From JADFSZ01 sp022560555 [NCBI: PVC group bacterium] (GTDB taxonomy: Bacteria; GCA-001730085; JADFSZ01), in contig JADFSZ010000030.1 in assembly GCA_022560555.1 (NCBI GenBank), positions 1 through 12,889 of the forward strand: DNA of 12,889 bases, given 5' to 3'. Of this stretch, positions 6 through 12,889 are shown in pieces; positions within the stretch are counted from its first letter, which is position 1; the number at the start of each line of letters is the position of its first letter. A program made the translations under genes and the position numbers. The notes under the pieces were generated by a model. That model saw only the letters and a list, made by a program, of their open reading frames with translations. It did no database searches and was not told the origin of the DNA.

Positions 6-983
6 TTATACCGTCTTTTGAAGAATTTCTTTTGGCCCGGGCCCGGGCTCACTGATCAAAATCCCGACATGGGGTAAAGCTTCTTTGATCACCTGCGTGA
101 TTTTGGACACATCTTTTTCAAGGCAGAAAATCTTCACTTGAGCGCCCGCGTCCATGGTTTCCCATGCACCAATACTCTTTAGGCGCATTTCTTCGCAGCA
201 GCGAATGGCCACAAGGCTTTCGGGCTTCCAGTAAAGAATCGGGGGCTCCGACGAAAACATGGTTGCGAACATTTTTAAATAGCTTGAACGGATAAAAGGC
301 CCAAGGCTCTCAAGATCCTTGTTGGCCAAGGCGCTTAACGCTTTCGGAAAGATTTTTTCAGAATCAAGACACCACTCTCGGTAAAAAGGGCTTGTGAGGC
401 GCGCGCGTTCCATCGCCCCGCGTGACGAAATGGTTTTTGCCGTCTTGCTTATCTCAACAACAACAATGCGAAGTTCCGGCCAAAAATGTTCTTCGTGAAT
501 CTTGTCCGCATGCTCCGCATGCGATGGGAACGAAACAAACCCTCCAAATACAGCACGTGCCGCGGAGGCGGAGCCGATACGCGCTAACCCTGAAATAATA
601 TCAAGGCTGACCCCCGGATCCAGTAATTTACCAGCGCCAAAAGCCAAAGCTGCGAAACCCGATGATGAACTCGCAAGCCCGGCGGATGTGGGAAAGTTGT
701 TACGGCTGTAACAGGAAAAACAGTCTTTTGAGTCAAAATATTCTCGAAGAGAATCAAAAAATGGAGTGAAACGTTCAATGTCCACCGGAATATCGTTAAC
801 AACAACGGAATCTTTTTCGGATCGAGCCACCGTTGTTGTGGTCGTAAGATTTTTGAGGGTAATGCCGATGCTTGGGGTCGCGGGAAGATTTTTCTCAACG
901 TCGCTTTTCCCCCAGTATTTTATAAGAGCGAGATTTGGGGAAGCCTGGACAGTTATATTTTCCTGTGAAGTTCCATGTGTCAT
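6..983 (-). CDS. mvaD: Diphosphomevalonate decarboxylase (GHMP kinase family)
   Basis: This cytosolic enzyme carries out the ATP-dependent decarboxylation of mevalonate 5-diphosphate to isopentenyl diphosphate, the last committed step of the classical mevalonate pathway. The 325 residues are full length for the family. Visible signatures are NLALIKYWGK (17-26), the GHMP phosphate-binding loop PTSAGLASSSSGFAAL (98-113), an Arg before VFGGF (R143), and TMDAGAQVK (277-285), in which Asp278 matches the conserved catalytic aspartate of this family. These features argue for the diphosphomevalonate enzyme rather than a general GHMP kinase. The start codon overlaps the mvaA stop as ATGA (980-983), so the two are probably translationally coupled. 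The stop is only a few bases from the left edge; the operon probably continues there with mevalonate and phosphomevalonate kinases (inference). Confidence 0.95.
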   Translation of the reverse strand: MTHGTSQENITVQASPNLALIKYWGKSDVEKNLPATPSIGITLKNLTTTTTVARSEKDSVVVNDIPVDIERFTPFFDSLREYFDSKDCFSCYSRNNFPTSAGLASSSSGFAALAFGAGKLLDPGVSLDIISGLARIGSASAARAVFGGFVSFPSHAEHADKIHEEHFWPELRIVVVEISKTAKTISSRGAMERARLTSPFYREWCLDSEKIFPKALSALANKDLESLGPFIRSSYLKMFATMFSSEPPILYWKPESLVAIRCCEEMRLKSIGAWETMDAGAQVKIFCLEKDVSKITQVIKEALPHVGILISEPGPGPKEILQKTV

Positions 984-2245
984 TCTTTGCCCCGGATATC
1001 ATCGAGAAGTTTTGTCGCGGCTTTGGCCGCGAGGGTTCCGGACTCCCACATCTTCTTCACAAGTACTTTGATTTCTTTTCCGCGCGCGCCAACCATATAC
1101 GCGATACGGGACGCGTGCAGTTTCATGTGCCCTTGCTGAATCCCTTCAGAAACAAGGGCCAACAAGGCTGCTAGATTTTGCGCCAGGCCCAATGCTGCCG
1201 CGATGCGGCATAAAATCTGCGCGTCAGGATTGCCGAGAATTTTCATGGAGGTTTGACACCCGGGATGCATGGTAACCGCGCCGCCGACAGTTCCTAAAGG
1301 AAGAGGAATTTCCAAAGAGCCTTCCAAATTCCCGTCTTTGACTTCAAAACGGGAAAGCGCTTTATAAGCTCCGCTTATGGACGCATAATGATGAGCGGCC
1401 GACTCAACGGCACGGGTATCATTGCCGGTGGCTAGTGTCAAAGCGACAATGCCGTTCATGATTCCCTTATTATGAGTAACGGCACGGGAAGGGGCTTCGA
1501 GCGCTAGGTGAGATGCCAGCTCAATTTTGGAGGAAATCTCGCTGCCGAGAAAATCTTTATAGCGTAAAAACCGAAAAGGAACGCGAAAACTTGCGCCGGC
1601 CCGACGGTGCGGAGCCGTATTCGTTAAAATCGACATGAGGATTTTCCCTCCGCTGATCTTTTCAATCATAGAGCGGATTTTTTCAGCCGCGGTATTAACA
1701 ACGTTAGCTCCCATGGCGTCGCGCACATCAATATCAATGTTCACGTTCACAAGCCCTGTGACGGGAAGCCGTGTGACTTCAAGGCCTCGATATCCGCCGC
1801 CGCGCGCCTTCATCGACGGCATGGATTTATCCAATTCATTTCCGATTTCCACGGAGGCGAGATAAATTTTTTCTTCCTCGCCGGCAGGAACACCTTCAAT
1901 GTACAATTGGGCCGTCATAACCGGATCTGTGGCCCATGTGTGAAATCCGCCTCCGGCCGCAACGATACGGGCGCCGTGGGATGCGGCCGCGATAACCGAG
2001 GGTTCTTCTGTTGCCATCGGAACAGAATATTCTCTCTGGTCAATGAGAAACCCGGTGGCCAATCCGAGGGGAACCGGAAAAAGGCCGATTCCGGATTCAA
2101 TCATCACGTCCGTCACTTCCAGGTAAGAGTTTTTGCCGTCAATCGCTTCCATTTCTTTTTCTGTTAAATGAAATGCGCTTTTCAGATGATCTCGTCTTTC
2201 CTGGATCGGCATTTTTCTAAAATTTTTTGGGAAACCGTTATTCAT
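980..2245 (-). CDS. mvaA: Hydroxymethylglutaryl-CoA reductase, class II (degradative-type)
   Basis: This enzyme interconverts HMG-CoA and mevalonate with NAD(P)H. The 421 residues match the soluble class II bacterial form, with no membrane domain. Catalytic residues can be placed against the Pseudomonas mevalonii enzyme: Glu80/81 in ATEEPSV, Lys260 in THNKGIMNG, Asp276 in GNDTRA, and His377 in GHMKLHASRI. The DAMGANVVNT segment (176-185) is the nucleotide-binding stretch. Automatic annotation often says 'degradative', but here the gene lies between fni and mvaD, so a biosynthetic role is the better reading. The gap to fni is 24 bases and the gene overlaps mvaD by 4 bases. No clear Shine-Dalgarno precedes the ATG at 2245. 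Cofactor preference cannot be read from the sequence with confidence. Confidence 0.95.
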   Translation of the reverse strand: MNNGFPKNFRKMPIQERRDHLKSAFHLTEKEMEAIDGKNSYLEVTDVMIESGIGLFPVPLGLATGFLIDQREYSVPMATEEPSVIAAASHGARIVAAGGGFHTWATDPVMTAQLYIEGVPAGEEEKIYLASVEIGNELDKSMPSMKARGGGYRGLEVTRLPVTGLVNVNIDIDVRDAMGANVVNTAAEKIRSMIEKISGGKILMSILTNTAPHRRAGASFRVPFRFLRYKDFLGSEISSKIELASHLALEAPSRAVTHNKGIMNGIVALTLATGNDTRAVESAAHHYASISGAYKALSRFEVKDGNLEGSLEIPLPLGTVGGAVTMHPGCQTSMKILGNPDAQILCRIAAALGLAQNLAALLALVSEGIQQGHMKLHASRIAYMVGARGKEIKVLVKKMWESGTLAAKAATKLLDDIRGKE

Positions 2246-2269
2246 AAGTTCGGTAAATGGTAATTAGAT

Positions 2270-3409
2270 TTACATTCCTTCCGCTTTTTTTATTTGTTCC
2301 ACATTGGATATAAAACTTGTCTCACGCCAGATCTTGTCGGCCGTCACATCTTTTAATGTTTTAGAAGACGTCAGAAGCATAACAGAACGAATCACTTTTT
2401 CAATCCCTTCAATACGCCGTATCACAGCTTCAACGCCGCCGGACAACACGTCGCGGATGAATATGCCGGCTAGCCCTCCCATCTTCGAGCCCAGAGCGAT
2501 GGATTTCATGAGATCCATTCCGGACTTTAAGCCGCCGGATGCCAAAACGCGGCCCGACATGGACCCGACACTATCCAACACATACGCCGTCGGAAGCCCC
2601 CAGTCCGTAAACTCGTTTGCCAATTGTTCCTCGTTTTTGTTAAGACGCTGAGCTTCGACAAGAACCCAATTCGTTCCTCCGGCGCCGGCAATATCAACAT
2701 ATTTGACCCCCATGTTGAGGAGCGTTTTAATCTGATGGGGACGAATGCCAAAACCTGTTTCTTTGACAATGACCGGGAGGGGACATGTCTTCACGGTTTG
2801 TTGGATAGCCCCAAGCAAACCTCGAAAATCGGTGTCGCCGCCGGGCTGAAAAAGTTCTTGTCCGGGATTAAGATGAATGACCAGCGCGTGGGCTTGAAGC
2901 TTCTCTAATAATTTATAGAGTTTTGTGTTGTCATCACCGCGCACTTGTACAGCGCCGATATTTGCCAGTATGGGAACATGGGGCGCGTAAGGCTTAATAT
3001 GAAAATGTTCAAATAAATTTTCTTGTTCTAACAGAACACGAATGGAACCTAATCCAACAGGAATATTTTTTGCTTCTGCCGCTTCGGCTAATTTACGGTT
3101 AGCCGTCATTCCTTGAGCAGATCCGCCCGTCATGCATGAAATAAAAAGCGGCAACGATACACGCTGACCTAAAAACTCGCAAGAACTATCAATATCTTCC
3201 ATGCTTAATTCGGGCAACGCATCATGGATAAAATGAACCCCCTCAAAACCACTCACAATCCCTGATTGAATGGAGGCAGCATCCGTATGACAAATATCCA
3301 AATGACTTTGTTTGCGATCCGAGATGTCAAGTTGATCCGAAGTTCCGGACGAATTGAGATTTTTATTCGCGGAAGAGGTACTCACGGTAACCATCCTCTC
3401 TAATCCCAT
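2270..3409 (-). CDS. fni: Type 2 isopentenyl-diphosphate delta-isomerase (FMN-dependent)
   Basis: This enzyme interconverts isopentenyl and dimethylallyl diphosphate using reduced FMN and Mg2+. Family marks are the N-terminal SDRKQSHLDIC stretch (30-40), SCMTGG (90-95), the HLNPGQELFQPGGD segment, VKETGFGI, and the flavin-phosphate region AGAGGTNW and SGGLKSG. At 379 residues it is longer than the usual ~330-350 because about 29 residues precede the conserved start. The start is uncertain. ATG 3409 and ATG 3394 have no usable ribosome site, whereas GTG 3385 has GAGAGG (3395-3400) at 9-base spacing. The gene overlaps the end of mvaS by 47 bases, or 23 if GTG is used, which suggests coupled translation. 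Type 2 isomerase is the usual partner of bacterial mevalonate pathways. Confidence 0.94.
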   Translation of the reverse strand: MGLERMVTVSTSSANKNLNSSGTSDQLDISDRKQSHLDICHTDAASIQSGIVSGFEGVHFIHDALPELSMEDIDSSCEFLGQRVSLPLFISCMTGGSAQGMTANRKLAEAAEAKNIPVGLGSIRVLLEQENLFEHFHIKPYAPHVPILANIGAVQVRGDDNTKLYKLLEKLQAHALVIHLNPGQELFQPGGDTDFRGLLGAIQQTVKTCPLPVIVKETGFGIRPHQIKTLLNMGVKYVDIAGAGGTNWVLVEAQRLNKNEEQLANEFTDWGLPTAYVLDSVGSMSGRVLASGGLKSGMDLMKSIALGSKMGGLAGIFIRDVLSGGVEAVIRRIEGIEKVIRSVMLLTSSKTLKDVTADKIWRETSFISNVEQIKKAEGM

Positions 3410-4658
3410 TTAAATAAAATGACCCTGAGCTCACGGAAGGGATGGCGGACTGAAGAAGTGGTAAATACGTTGAACGGTTAAACCGATCAGTGGAAAGCCA
3501 TTGCTCATAATCGGTGAATGATGCTTCATTTCCGTTGGCAAGAAGTCCTTCAAGATCCCATTTTTCAATGACCTCGGGCGCTTTTGGAGCCACTTTTCCG
3601 GACACCACGAGCATGGTGTTCCCGGATCCATAGGATGCCAAAAGAACCTTTTTTCCGATAATATCCGAGCCCAGCTCTTTATAACGATCTTTGAGAAGAA
3701 AAGCTAAAGGCATAAACAAGGCGCCGGAATAAAGATTCCCGCTTTTGGAAGCCGGCTGGATGAGAGCCTGGAATCCCCGACGATCAAGGAAATCAGTCGC
3801 TTCTTGTTTGCTCAGTCCGAGAATTTTATGTAAAAGATGTCGCATGGCTTCCATGGGCAAACTTTTGTAGGGAACATGGAGAACAAAAAGGTCGGTTGAT
3901 TCTAAAACCTCTTTGGGGTCTAATTTTCTTCGAAGGCTATGATCTTTGAGTGCCGCCTCAAGGCCCTCGATATAACAACGAAGGGAAAAACGACCCTTCA
4001 CTTTGGCCGTATCAGAACCAATAGGACGAAAAAAATCATCCACATCTCTCGAACTGTATCCGACGGTGGAAAGATCTAGTTCAATCAACTTTGGATTTTT
4101 TTCAACCAGCATAGCCACGGCCCCTGCCCCTTGAGTGATTTCGGCCGTTGTCGAAGGCTCGTATTTAGCAACATCGGTGCAGACAACAATACCGTTTTCA
4201 TTAAAATTGTTGTTGTTCATAGAGAGCATGGCCCCAACACCGACAAGAGAAATGGTTCCTCCGGCACATGCATGTTGTATTTGGTAGGTAGAAATGGATT
4301 GAGGGATTTTGAATCCGGCGCGCTGAAGGAGACCTTCAATGTAGGCGGCAATGGGTTTTGAAAAATCTATCGTTGTTTCAGTGCCGACAGCGATATATCG
4401 AAGTCCGGATAAATTTGCGTCCGGGTTCGAACGAATCAATTTCGCCATGGCTTCAGCGCCCATGGTGACCGTGTCTTCCCACGTGTCGGGAAAACGCATG
4501 GACTCTTGTCCTGTGTATTCCATCGCGCGACGGATTGTTTTTGCAACCCGAGGATCCGTTTTCCCGTTTTCCCGCTTCCGAACAATGGCTTCAAGGCTGA
4601 TGCAAGGTTTCGGAAGATAGATCGCGATATCACTTATACCAATAGGCGTCATTTTCAT
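3363..4658 (-). CDS. mvaS: Hydroxymethylglutaryl-CoA synthase
   Basis: This enzyme condenses acetyl-CoA with acetoacetyl-CoA to give HMG-CoA, the entry to the mevalonate pathway. It has the thiolase fold, and the 431 residues are slightly longer than many bacterial MvaS proteins. Visible active-site parts are the nucleophile Cys131 in QHACAGGT (128-135), Glu61 in TWEDTVTMGAEA (59-70) as the likely general base, and His261 in LHVPYKS (260-266). ASYGSGNTM (341-349) is the conserved C-terminal glycine/serine loop. It is the first gene of the minus-strand operon, and its 3' end overlaps fni. No Shine-Dalgarno is seen before ATG 4658 or the alternative ATG 4652. A sigma70-like promoter lies about 130 bases upstream. 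Confidence 0.95.
   Translation of the reverse strand: MKMTPIGISDIAIYLPKPCISLEAIVRKRENGKTDPRVAKTIRRAMEYTGQESMRFPDTWEDTVTMGAEAMAKLIRSNPDANLSGLRYIAVGTETTIDFSKPIAAYIEGLLQRAGFKIPQSISTYQIQHACAGGTISLVGVGAMLSMNNNNFNENGIVVCTDVAKYEPSTTAEITQGAGAVAMLVEKNPKLIELDLSTVGYSSRDVDDFFRPIGSDTAKVKGRFSLRCYIEGLEAALKDHSLRRKLDPKEVLESTDLFVLHVPYKSLPMEAMRHLLHKILGLSKQEATDFLDRRGFQALIQPASKSGNLYSGALFMPLAFLLKDRYKELGSDIIGKKVLLASYGSGNTMLVVSGKVAPKAPEVIEKWDLEGLLANGNEASFTDYEQWLSTDRFNRSTYLPLLQSAIPSVSSGSFYLNGIREDGYREYLFRE
3395..3400 (-). promoter_or_regulatory. Possible ribosome binding site for an internal GTG start of fni
   Basis: GAGAGG on the minus strand lies 9 bases before GTG 3385 but directly touches ATG 3394, so it cannot serve that ATG. 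It therefore favours the shorter GTG-initiated isomerase. ATG 3409 lies upstream of this site. It has no Shine-Dalgarno, but mvaS and mvaA in the same operon also lack one, so the choice stays open. Confidence 0.4.
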
Positions 4659-11008: not shown

Positions 11009-11695
11009 ATGGTTTCAACAAAAAAATATCACCATGTGTGGGATCTAACTACCAGAGAAGCCAAAGACTTACAAGCAAATCACAGATCTCTTGTGATCTT
11101 GACGCCTCCCAAGGGGCCGATCCGCCGTATTGCCGCGTGTGATGTGTCCTTCTCGAGACATGCCGAAGATCTCTATGCGGGGGTGGCTGTCTTTAGCTAC
11201 CCGGACTTAAGGCTTTTAGATAAAGCGACCGCAAAAGTCAAAATAACATTTCCATACGTCCCCGGATATCTGTCCTTCAGGGAAACCCCGGCTGTATTAG
11301 AAGCGTTTAAACATATAAAAATTCAGTCGGATTGCATTATCTTGGATGGACAGGGCCTCGCTCATCCCCGATTTTTTGGGCTGGCTTGTCACGTGGGCCT
11401 TTGGATGAATTGTCCCACGATCGGATGTGCCAAGAGTCGTCTCATAGGAGAATTTGTAGACCCCGACATGACAAAAGGATCTTCATCTCCACTCAAAATA
11501 GGGTTCCGGACGGTGGGCGCTGTGCTTAGGACACGTTCCGGCGTAAAGCCGCTTTTTGTCTCACCGGGACATCTTATGGATATTTCAACAGCAAAAAAAA
11601 TCATTCTCAGTTTATGTGTGAAGTACCGGATTCCGGAACCCATCCGATATGTTCATGATTTGGTCAATGCGGCACGCCGGCGGGAAGAATCTTGA
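11009..11695 (+). CDS. nfi: Endonuclease V (deoxyinosine 3' endonuclease)
   Basis: This DNA repair enzyme nicks the second phosphodiester bond 3' to deoxyinosine and other deaminated bases. The 228 residues are normal for the bacterial family. Catalytic residues align with the Thermotoga enzyme: Asp45 in ACDVSF, Glu92 in LSFRET, Asp113 in ILDGQGLAHPR, and His216 in PEPIRYVH near the end. The strand-separating wedge PYVPG (82-86) and the VSPGHLMD segment (185-191) are present. Ribosome site AAAGGAA (10994-11000) is 8 bases from ATG 11009. Its last 43 bases overlap the 3' end of the opposite-strand TrmJ-like gene, so the two transcripts are complementary there. Deamination repair next to the translesion polymerase cluster may be coincidence. 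Confidence 0.96.
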   Translation: MVSTKKYHHVWDLTTREAKDLQANHRSLVILTPPKGPIRRIAACDVSFSRHAEDLYAGVAVFSYPDLRLLDKATAKVKITFPYVPGYLSFRETPAVLEAFKHIKIQSDCIILDGQGLAHPRFFGLACHVGLWMNCPTIGCAKSRLIGEFVDPDMTKGSSSPLKIGFRTVGAVLRTRSGVKPLFVSPGHLMDISTAKKIILSLCVKYRIPEPIRYVHDLVNAARRREES

Positions 11696-12258
11696 GAGAT
11701 CTCTTTGGGATGAACAGGATAAAATGTTTTTTCAATAAGATTCAGAAAACTATGAAACGCGGCCACATCGCGGCTTTCCAAGGGGATTTTGTTGAGAATA
11801 CGCTTCATACTAAAAGAAAATTCTTCGCGCAAATGTTCATTATAAAAAGGCAGTTCCCGGAAGATTTTATCAAAATGTTCATGCATCATTTGAATTTCGG
11901 TAAAATCGGCGGTTTTTAACGTATATGTTTGATCCATCGTATGAAGCGAACGGGACAGCTCATAACAATAGATCATCACCGCGTGAGAGAGGTTGCACGA
12001 AGGATGTTTTGTGAATTGCGGGATCGCGGTAATCGCGTGGCACATGGCTAGTTCGTTTCTTAAAAGTCCGTTTGTTTCTCTGCCGAAGACAAGAGCAATG
12101 ATTGAATCGCTGGAAAGTTTTTTTAGCACAGTAGGGAGTTCATGCGGGGCATACGAGAGCCTTTGGTCCCGGCGCTTTCGCTTTCGCTGTGTGGTTCCGA
12201 TCACAAAATGAACGCCCTTTAAAGCTGTTTCTAAATTCATAAAACATGGAGTTATCAT
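11653..12258 (-). CDS. trmJ: TrmJ-like tRNA 2'-O-methyltransferase, N-terminus missing
   Basis: This is a SpoU/TrmH (SPOUT) family methyltransferase. Its best match by motif order is TrmJ, which methylates the 2'-OH of nucleotide 32 in tRNA. Visible are the HFVIGTTQR strand, the SAM-binding motif IALVFGRETNGL, and the motif-3 stretch KHPSCNLSHAVMIYCYELS. A helical C-terminal extension like that of TrmJ follows. About 60 N-terminal residues expected in the family, including the first conserved block with the catalytic-region Arg, are absent. Recognisable sequence begins near ETALKG (about 12240), immediately beside the DUF1302-like fragment. The ATG at 12258 lies in or next to that foreign sequence and is not a credible native start; ATG 12240 has no ribosome site. 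The gene is thus broken, or cut by a chimeric join. Confidence 0.85.
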   Translation of the reverse strand: MITPCFMNLETALKGVHFVIGTTQRKRKRRDQRLSYAPHELPTVLKKLSSDSIIALVFGRETNGLLRNELAMCHAITAIPQFTKHPSCNLSHAVMIYCYELSRSLHTMDQTYTLKTADFTEIQMMHEHFDKIFRELPFYNEHLREEFSFSMKRILNKIPLESRDVAAFHSFLNLIEKTFYPVHPKEISQDSSRRRAALTKS

Positions 12259-12889
12259 CGCTGTGATAGTCCACCCACATCAGACCAAGGTCGAGACTAT
12301 CTGACCAGTTATAATCAACTGATATTCGACTAACACGACCGGCGTTGTCAGCCAATTCCTTCCAAACGGCCAGTACTTGTATTCTCTCATTTAATGCCGT
12401 CCAGTAGAGCCTGGATCCAAAACTGATCTGGTCTTCATCAGCCTGCATAAACGCGTCGTGATCTCGCGTGTGGATGCTATCTATTTCAAAAGTGAGCAGC
12501 AGGTTTCTGAAACCGCTATATTCGATACCCAATACACTCAACAATTGATCCTTCTGATCCCAACCGTTTAGCTGACGGAAGAAGTCATCACTATTGGGAC
12601 GCACCGCCTGGTCAAGGTGCATCCCCAACTCGCCAAAGTACAGCCAGGAACCTCCCACCCAGTTCGCCGCTATACCAAGGGCACGCATGCGGTTCTGCCG
12701 GTAGGTCACCCGTGGGCTCACCGATTTTACGGCGGATATTTGATCGACAGTAAGCGCATTGTCGTTAAATTCGCCCAGCACCAACTGGAAATCACCGTGA
12801 TCGAAATGACTCGACGCACGAAAAAAATATTCAGTGTCTTGCTTGGTATCTTTTCGCAACAGGGTCAATCCAGAATCGCGGATTGTGAT
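12140..12889 (-). CDS. DUF1302-like protein, C-terminal fragment, open at right edge
   Basis: The frame is open from the right edge (residues ITIRDSGLTLLRKD precede the first in-frame TTG at 12868) to a stop at 12140. Only about 218 residues, down to roughly 12236, look genuine. They resemble proteobacterial DUF1302 outer-membrane-type proteins: an AANWVGGSWLYFGELG segment, GIEYSGFRNLLLTFEID, alternating beta-strand-like stretches, and a terminal IDVDYNW-like 'SDSLDLGLMWVDYH' strand. After MFYEFRN the frame runs into the TrmJ gene in another phase and yields a Lys/Ala/Pro tail of no likely meaning. The usual last strands are therefore lost. Base composition rises to about 63% GC in places (12601-12660), versus about 45% in the main region. 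It probably belongs to a different genome from the rest. Confidence 0.6.
   Translation of the reverse strand: MTIRDSGLTLLRKDTKQDTEYFFRASSHFDHGDFQLVLGEFNDNALTVDQISAVKSVSPRVTYRQNRMRALGIAANWVGGSWLYFGELGMHLDQAVRPNSDDFFRQLNGWDQKDQLLSVLGIEYSGFRNLLLTFEIDSIHTRDHDAFMQADEDQISFGSRLYWTALNERIQVLAVWKELADNAGRVSRISVDYNWSDSLDLGLMWVDYHSDDNSMFYEFRNSFKGRSFCDRNHTAKAKAPGPKALVCPA
12232..12255. other. Chimeric junction between TrmJ-like and DUF1302-like genes
   Basis: On the minus strand the DUF1302-like frame stays family-like through DNSMFYEFRN and then becomes nonsense. The TrmJ-like frame, in another phase, becomes family-like from about FMNLETALKG. Both truncated ends meet in about 20 bases. No insertion sequence, tRNA, direct repeat or integrase lies at the join. 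Confidence 0.7.

What the first reader, a model, noticed from the sequence alone, without database searches (positions are those of the whole stretch)
12232..12255. Two unrelated genes broken at the same point
A TrmJ-like methyltransferase without its first ~60 residues abuts a DUF1302-like protein without its C-terminal strands, both on the minus strand in different frames. Neither end has a native start or stop. Losing both gene ends at one point without mobile-element remains is typical of an assembly chimera; a real recombination breakpoint is the alternative. Anything to the right of ~12235 should not be used to infer this organism's biology until this is resolved.
Basis: partly seen in the sequence, partly recalled or inferred. 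Interest (0 to 1): 0.6.

Follow-up and report, generated by a model that had tools for sequence, protein, structure and literature searches.

The report
Misjoined end of a metagenome contig
The last ~650 bases of this contig most likely come from a different, proteobacterial organism and were wrongly glued on during sequencing or assembly, so the two broken genes are an artefact, not biology.

Summary
The window is a whole contig (C191) of a 222-contig draft genome. At its right end a TrmJ/YjtD methyltransferase lacking its first ~61 profile positions meets, out of frame, a probable outer-membrane protein lacking only its last 14 residues. The join lies at 12226-12237, in 10-12 bases that fit both genes. 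The right-hand piece looks foreign: its only relative in a genome-collection scan is a Proteobacteria MAG, 63% identical over 217/217 residues; 0 of 58 other genomes tried match it; its codon usage lies outside all 268 host chunks, while the TrmJ remnant sits at the host mean. Weaker composition measures agree less. Neither missing gene end was found in the genome; the model for the TrmJ front works in 5 of 6 control genomes. No repeat or tRNA marks the join. A chimeric contig end is by far the simplest explanation; a real recent transfer plus breakage cannot be excluded without reads. Corrections: join slightly further left; one terminal strand lost, not several; 'DUF1302' is a sub-threshold match.

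The parts
11653..12240 (-). TrmJ/YjtD-family tRNA/rRNA methyltransferase (SPOUT superfamily: recalled), 5' part missing (about 61 profile positions, including the conserved N-x-G-x-x-x-R block)
   Evidence: TIGR00050 positions 62-230/233, E 1.6e-36; alignment with 13 homologues; block invariant in the 10 homologues of A1; native codon usage
12226..12237 (.). join: AATTTAGAAACA on the minus strand fits both genes, so the breakpoint cannot be placed more finely
   Evidence: codons of both frames and L018 DNA, which reads TTTAGAAACA at the same point; the 15-mer here occurs once in the genome with up to 1 mismatch
12227..12889 (-). foreign piece: part of a probable outer-membrane beta-barrel protein (barrel inferred, not modelled), lacking its front (runs off the contig) and its last 14 residues
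   Evidence: 63% identity over 217/217 aa to L018:4320-5708; codon usage and Markov score
11009..11695 (+). endonuclease V, intact neighbour on the native side; its 3' end overlaps the 3' end of the TrmJ frame by 43 bases
   Evidence: PF04493 E 2.6e-66; coordinates

Best explanation
The right end of this contig is a chimera. DNA (or reads) of the window's organism, ending inside its trmJ gene, was joined to DNA of an unrelated proteobacterium, ending inside the last codons of a probable outer-membrane-protein gene, at a 10-12-base word that both happened to share. It happened in assembly (a short-overlap misjoin at a contig end) or earlier, as a template-switch or ligation chimera in library making. 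Shown: the two pieces differ in sequence relatives and codon usage and both genes break at one point. Inferred: that the join is artificial, and how it arose.
For: Right piece: the pattern scan of one genome per 84,980 species gave one relative, in a Proteobacteria MAG, 63% over 217/217 aa; 0 of 58 other genomes, including the one other held genome of the host phylum, match at E<=0.001. Synonymous codon LLR -0.037 against 0.086 (sd 0.029) for 268 host chunks, 0 of 268 as low; 7 L018 chunks -0.132 to -0.034; TrmJ remnant, not in the training set, 0.085. GC3 0.544 against host 0.446 (sd 0.035), L018 0.547, TrmJ remnant 0.441. Markov score: 0 of 200 host segments as low; the sliding score changes sign across the join. 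TrmJ front not found in the genome though the same model rings in 5 of 6 control genomes; front of the other protein not found. No repeats or tRNA at the join. The piece is the last 650 bases of a contig. [quoted passage not shown]
Against: No reads, so no coverage or pair evidence. Simple composition is less clear: tetranucleotide distance as large in 3 of 200 host segments and GC as high in 12 of 200; dinucleotide distance as large in 42 of 232 overlapping segments of the window. The right piece lies at the host-near edge of the L018 codon range (6 of 7 L018 chunks lower; these chunks and the host chunks were scored by models trained on them). The L018 model rests on 2,129 codons. Misassemblies across organisms are called relatively rare (PMC8201837; PMC7111523; passages). 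One search has no positive control.
Confidence: 0.93

Rival explanations
1. Real breakpoint: the organism (or some cells of it) recently acquired a proteobacterial DNA piece, and a deletion or microhomology-mediated recombination fused trmJ to it, killing both genes.
For: A 10-12-base microhomology at the join is also what real illegitimate recombination can leave; the rest of the acquired piece could lie on an unbinned contig.
Against: Needs transfer between distant lineages plus loss of both gene ends, with no repeat or tRNA at the join and no mobile-element family among the 9 window proteins scanned with Pfam (not all frames were scanned); so recent that neither remnant has a stop codon and the codon usage is unchanged; and it must fall by chance in the last 650 bases of a contig.
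Confidence: 0.05
2. The right piece is native: its gene belongs to this genome, and a native rearrangement or deletion fused it to trmJ.
For: It lies on the same contig; 3 of 200 host segments have as odd a tetranucleotide profile and dinucleotides are not unusual.
Against: Codon usage: 0 of 268 host chunks as low; Markov score: 0 of 200; no second copy or front part found in the genome; the one close relative found is in a Proteobacteria MAG.
Confidence: 0.02

Closest known systems
Inter-genome chimeric contig (misassembly) in metagenome assembly
   Same: two lineage signals on one contig, abrupt change at one point, at a contig end, short shared word
   Different: reads are not at hand, so lack of paired-read support, the usual proof, is untested
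TrmJ/YjtD family (TIGR00050)
   Same: profile positions 62-230 of 233, with the conserved FGxExxGL and NLSHAV..YE blocks seen in the alignment
   Different: first ~61 positions, with the N-x-G-x-x-x-R block, are missing at the join
DUF1302 (PF06980)
   Same: one weak sub-threshold hit
   Different: 17.5 bits against a cut-off of 23.2; the full-length relative in L018 has no Pfam or NCBIfam match

Membership tests
Chimeric contig (artefact) | different lineage signal on either side of one point | tested here: met
   simple tetra- and dinucleotide measures weaker; the left side's lineage could not be named
Chimeric contig (artefact) | genes cut at the point without mobile-element remains | tested here: met
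   (9 window proteins)
Chimeric contig (artefact) | lack of spanning read pairs or coverage step | not testable with these tools
   no reads held
TrmJ/YjtD (TIGR00050) | score over the family cut-off for the whole protein | tested here: not met
   126.4 bits against 167.15, positions 62-230 only: read as a fragment of a member
DUF1302 (PF06980) | score over the gathering cut-off | tested here: not met
   17.5 against 23.2; no hit for the clean fragment or for L018's full-length protein

The most novel reading that the evidence does not exclude
A real, very recent insertion of proteobacterial DNA into trmJ of a member of a sparsely sampled phylum, through 10-12 bases of microhomology, present in part of the population.
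Probability: 0.04. Interest if true: 0.35.

Novelty: not a real feature. Interest (0 to 1): 0.07.

Why it matters
It is a small warning for users of this draft genome: bases from about 12227 to 12889 should be cut off, the right-hand gene should not be counted as this organism's, and trmJ should be called 'interrupted by the assembly', not lost or decayed. It also shows that codon usage plus a search for the missing gene ends can take such a case a long way without reads.

Tried and rejected
Mobile element or integration site at the join: no repeats of 12 or more bases in 11600-12889, no tRNA in the window, no plasmid match for the right piece, no viral-contig relative for either piece (7 pattern matches for the TrmJ piece, none confirmed). 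Missing TrmJ front on another contig of the genome, which would have proved the misjoin: not found. A general habit of this assembly to have foreign contig ends: among 34 contigs (33 sampled and the window, whose own right end is one of the odd segments), 63 terminal segments were slightly odder in tetranucleotides than 446 interior ones (one-sided Mann-Whitney p 0.016; 13 of the 50 oddest segments terminal, against 12.4% of all segments). I opened two odd ends (L026, L033) by reading their open frames only and saw no clear broken-gene join, so I do not claim it. Three sampled contigs (L021, L022, L071) read all N and were dropped; my first composition run still held L021 and L022 and is replaced.

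So 'different lineages' rests on the right piece's relative, its absence elsewhere and codon usage, not on named best hits for both sides.

Full report
What was looked at. The window is the complete contig C191 of a draft genome of 1,658,262 bases in 222 contigs, completeness 91.5%, contamination 2.0%. Its phylum has one other genome in the held set. The finding concerns the last 650 bases.

The observation. On the minus strand the TrmJ/YjtD frame (11653-12258) matches TIGR00050 from position 62 to 230 of 233 (E 1.6e-36, 126.4 bits against a cut-off of 167.15). In an alignment with 13 homologues from other genomes (14 loci tried), homology begins at or just before 'MNLETALKG' (12240 and down). 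In two homologues whose front starts with a methionine in the stretch used (L006, L016), 66 residues precede that point; the 10 fronts aligned as A1 share an invariant N-x-G-x-x-x-R block. The right-hand frame (12889 down) matches, without a gap, the protein L018:4320-5708 of a MAG titled 'Proteobacteria bacterium isolate casp150-mb.100' (JAQBSZ010000016.1): 137 of 217 residues identical. The match continues as '..FYEFRN' to 12227 and stops there; the relative has 14 further residues. The two frames differ. That the protein is an outer-membrane barrel is my inference from the weak DUF1302 hit and from the look of its C-terminal strands; no structure was predicted.

The join. Minus-strand bases 12237-12226 (AATTTAGAAACA) fit both genes: the relative's DNA reads TTTAGAAACA at the same place before it goes its own way, and the TrmJ frame has the conserved leucine at 12234-12232 and alanine at 12225-12223. 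So two unrelated sequences meet in a shared word of about 10-12 bases. The 15-mer at the join occurs once in the genome with up to one mismatch.

Which side is native. Synonymous codon usage was modelled on 196 open frames (78,259 codons) of 33 sampled contigs and the left part of the window, TrmJ left out, against 2,129 codons of the proteobacterial locus with the homologous gene left out. The right piece scores -0.037 per codon; 268 host chunks of 217 codons average 0.086 (sd 0.029, lowest -0.002; 0 of 268 as low); 7 proteobacterial chunks lie between -0.132 and -0.034, so the right piece is at the host-near edge of their range; the TrmJ remnant scores 0.085. Host and L018 chunks were scored by models trained on them, the right piece and the TrmJ remnant were not. 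GC at third positions: right 0.544, TrmJ 0.441, host 0.446 (sd 0.035), L018 0.547. A second-order Markov score (18 sampled contigs and the left part; the segment's own contig left out): right -0.030, 200 host segments mean 0.034, lowest -0.016 (0 of 200 as low), with the change of sign across the join in a sliding view. Simpler measures are weaker: tetranucleotide distance as large in 3 of 200 host segments, GC as high in 12 of 200; against overlapping segments of the window itself, 0 of 232 are as odd in tetra- and trinucleotides but 42 of 232 in dinucleotides.

Where the missing ends are. A TIGR00050 search of the whole genome up to E 10 finds only this fragment. A model of the missing front alone (A1, 10 homologues) finds nothing in the genome up to E 10 (9 candidates scored), while it rings in 5 of 6 control genomes, 4 of which did not contribute to it; the sixth, G046, had only a weak match to the TrmJ query before. 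The front of the other protein, taken from L018, was not found in the genome either (no positive control). The genome is a draft, so absence is not proof. Of the 58 other genomes searched as 'relatives', none matches the right piece (one of the same phylum, 57 of the same domain only). In the order of the MAG that holds L018, 11 of 145 genomes drawn match, that MAG included; the next best has 29% identity. Plasmid and viral collections gave no relative (TrmJ side in viral contigs).

Reading. A contig end of 650 bases with its one close relative in another lineage, foreign codon usage, a cut in the front third of one gene and near the end of another, a short shared word at the join and no repeat or tRNA is what a chimeric join leaves. 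The passages seen in four papers fit: chimeric sequences at contig ends, between two close genomes of a mock community (PMC8172020); lower-coverage species more prone to chimeric contigs (PMC7881036); such joins recognised by coverage and phylogenetic differences and lack of paired reads, and rare (PMC7111523); misassemblies relatively rare (PMC8201837). They were found by two listings. A true transfer with breakage would need several unlikely events, all very recent, since both remnants are open. I put the artefact at 0.93. Whether the join was made by the assembler or by a chimeric library molecule cannot be told.

Consequences. The window's biology should be read from 1 to about 12225. This fragment is the genome's only PF00588 (SpoU) match at E<=0.001, and trmJ is best taken as intact in the organism and cut by the assembly (inference).

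Noticed in passing
6-4658 (-): Mevalonate-pathway cluster: diphosphomevalonate decarboxylase-like, HMG-CoA reductase, an FMN_dh-family protein (type 2 IPP isomerase by my inference) and HMG-CoA synthase in a row; the one other held genome of the phylum has no match to the reductase.
   Followed up: partly
L018:1132-6462: In the proteobacterial relative the right-hand gene follows an MMPL-family exporter and a LolA_like lipoprotein-sorting gene and precedes a TetR regulator; the protein itself matches no Pfam or NCBIfam model.
   Followed up: partly
33 sampled contigs of G000 and the window: Terminal segments of contigs are slightly more deviant in tetranucleotides than interior ones (p 0.016, 63 against 446 segments); could mean more chimeric ends or just repeats and odd genes.
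   Followed up: partly
G018: C15:9-119 and C21:24459-24536: In a control genome the TrmJ front and the rest appear to lie on two different contigs, i.e. the gene seems split by a contig break.
   Followed up: no
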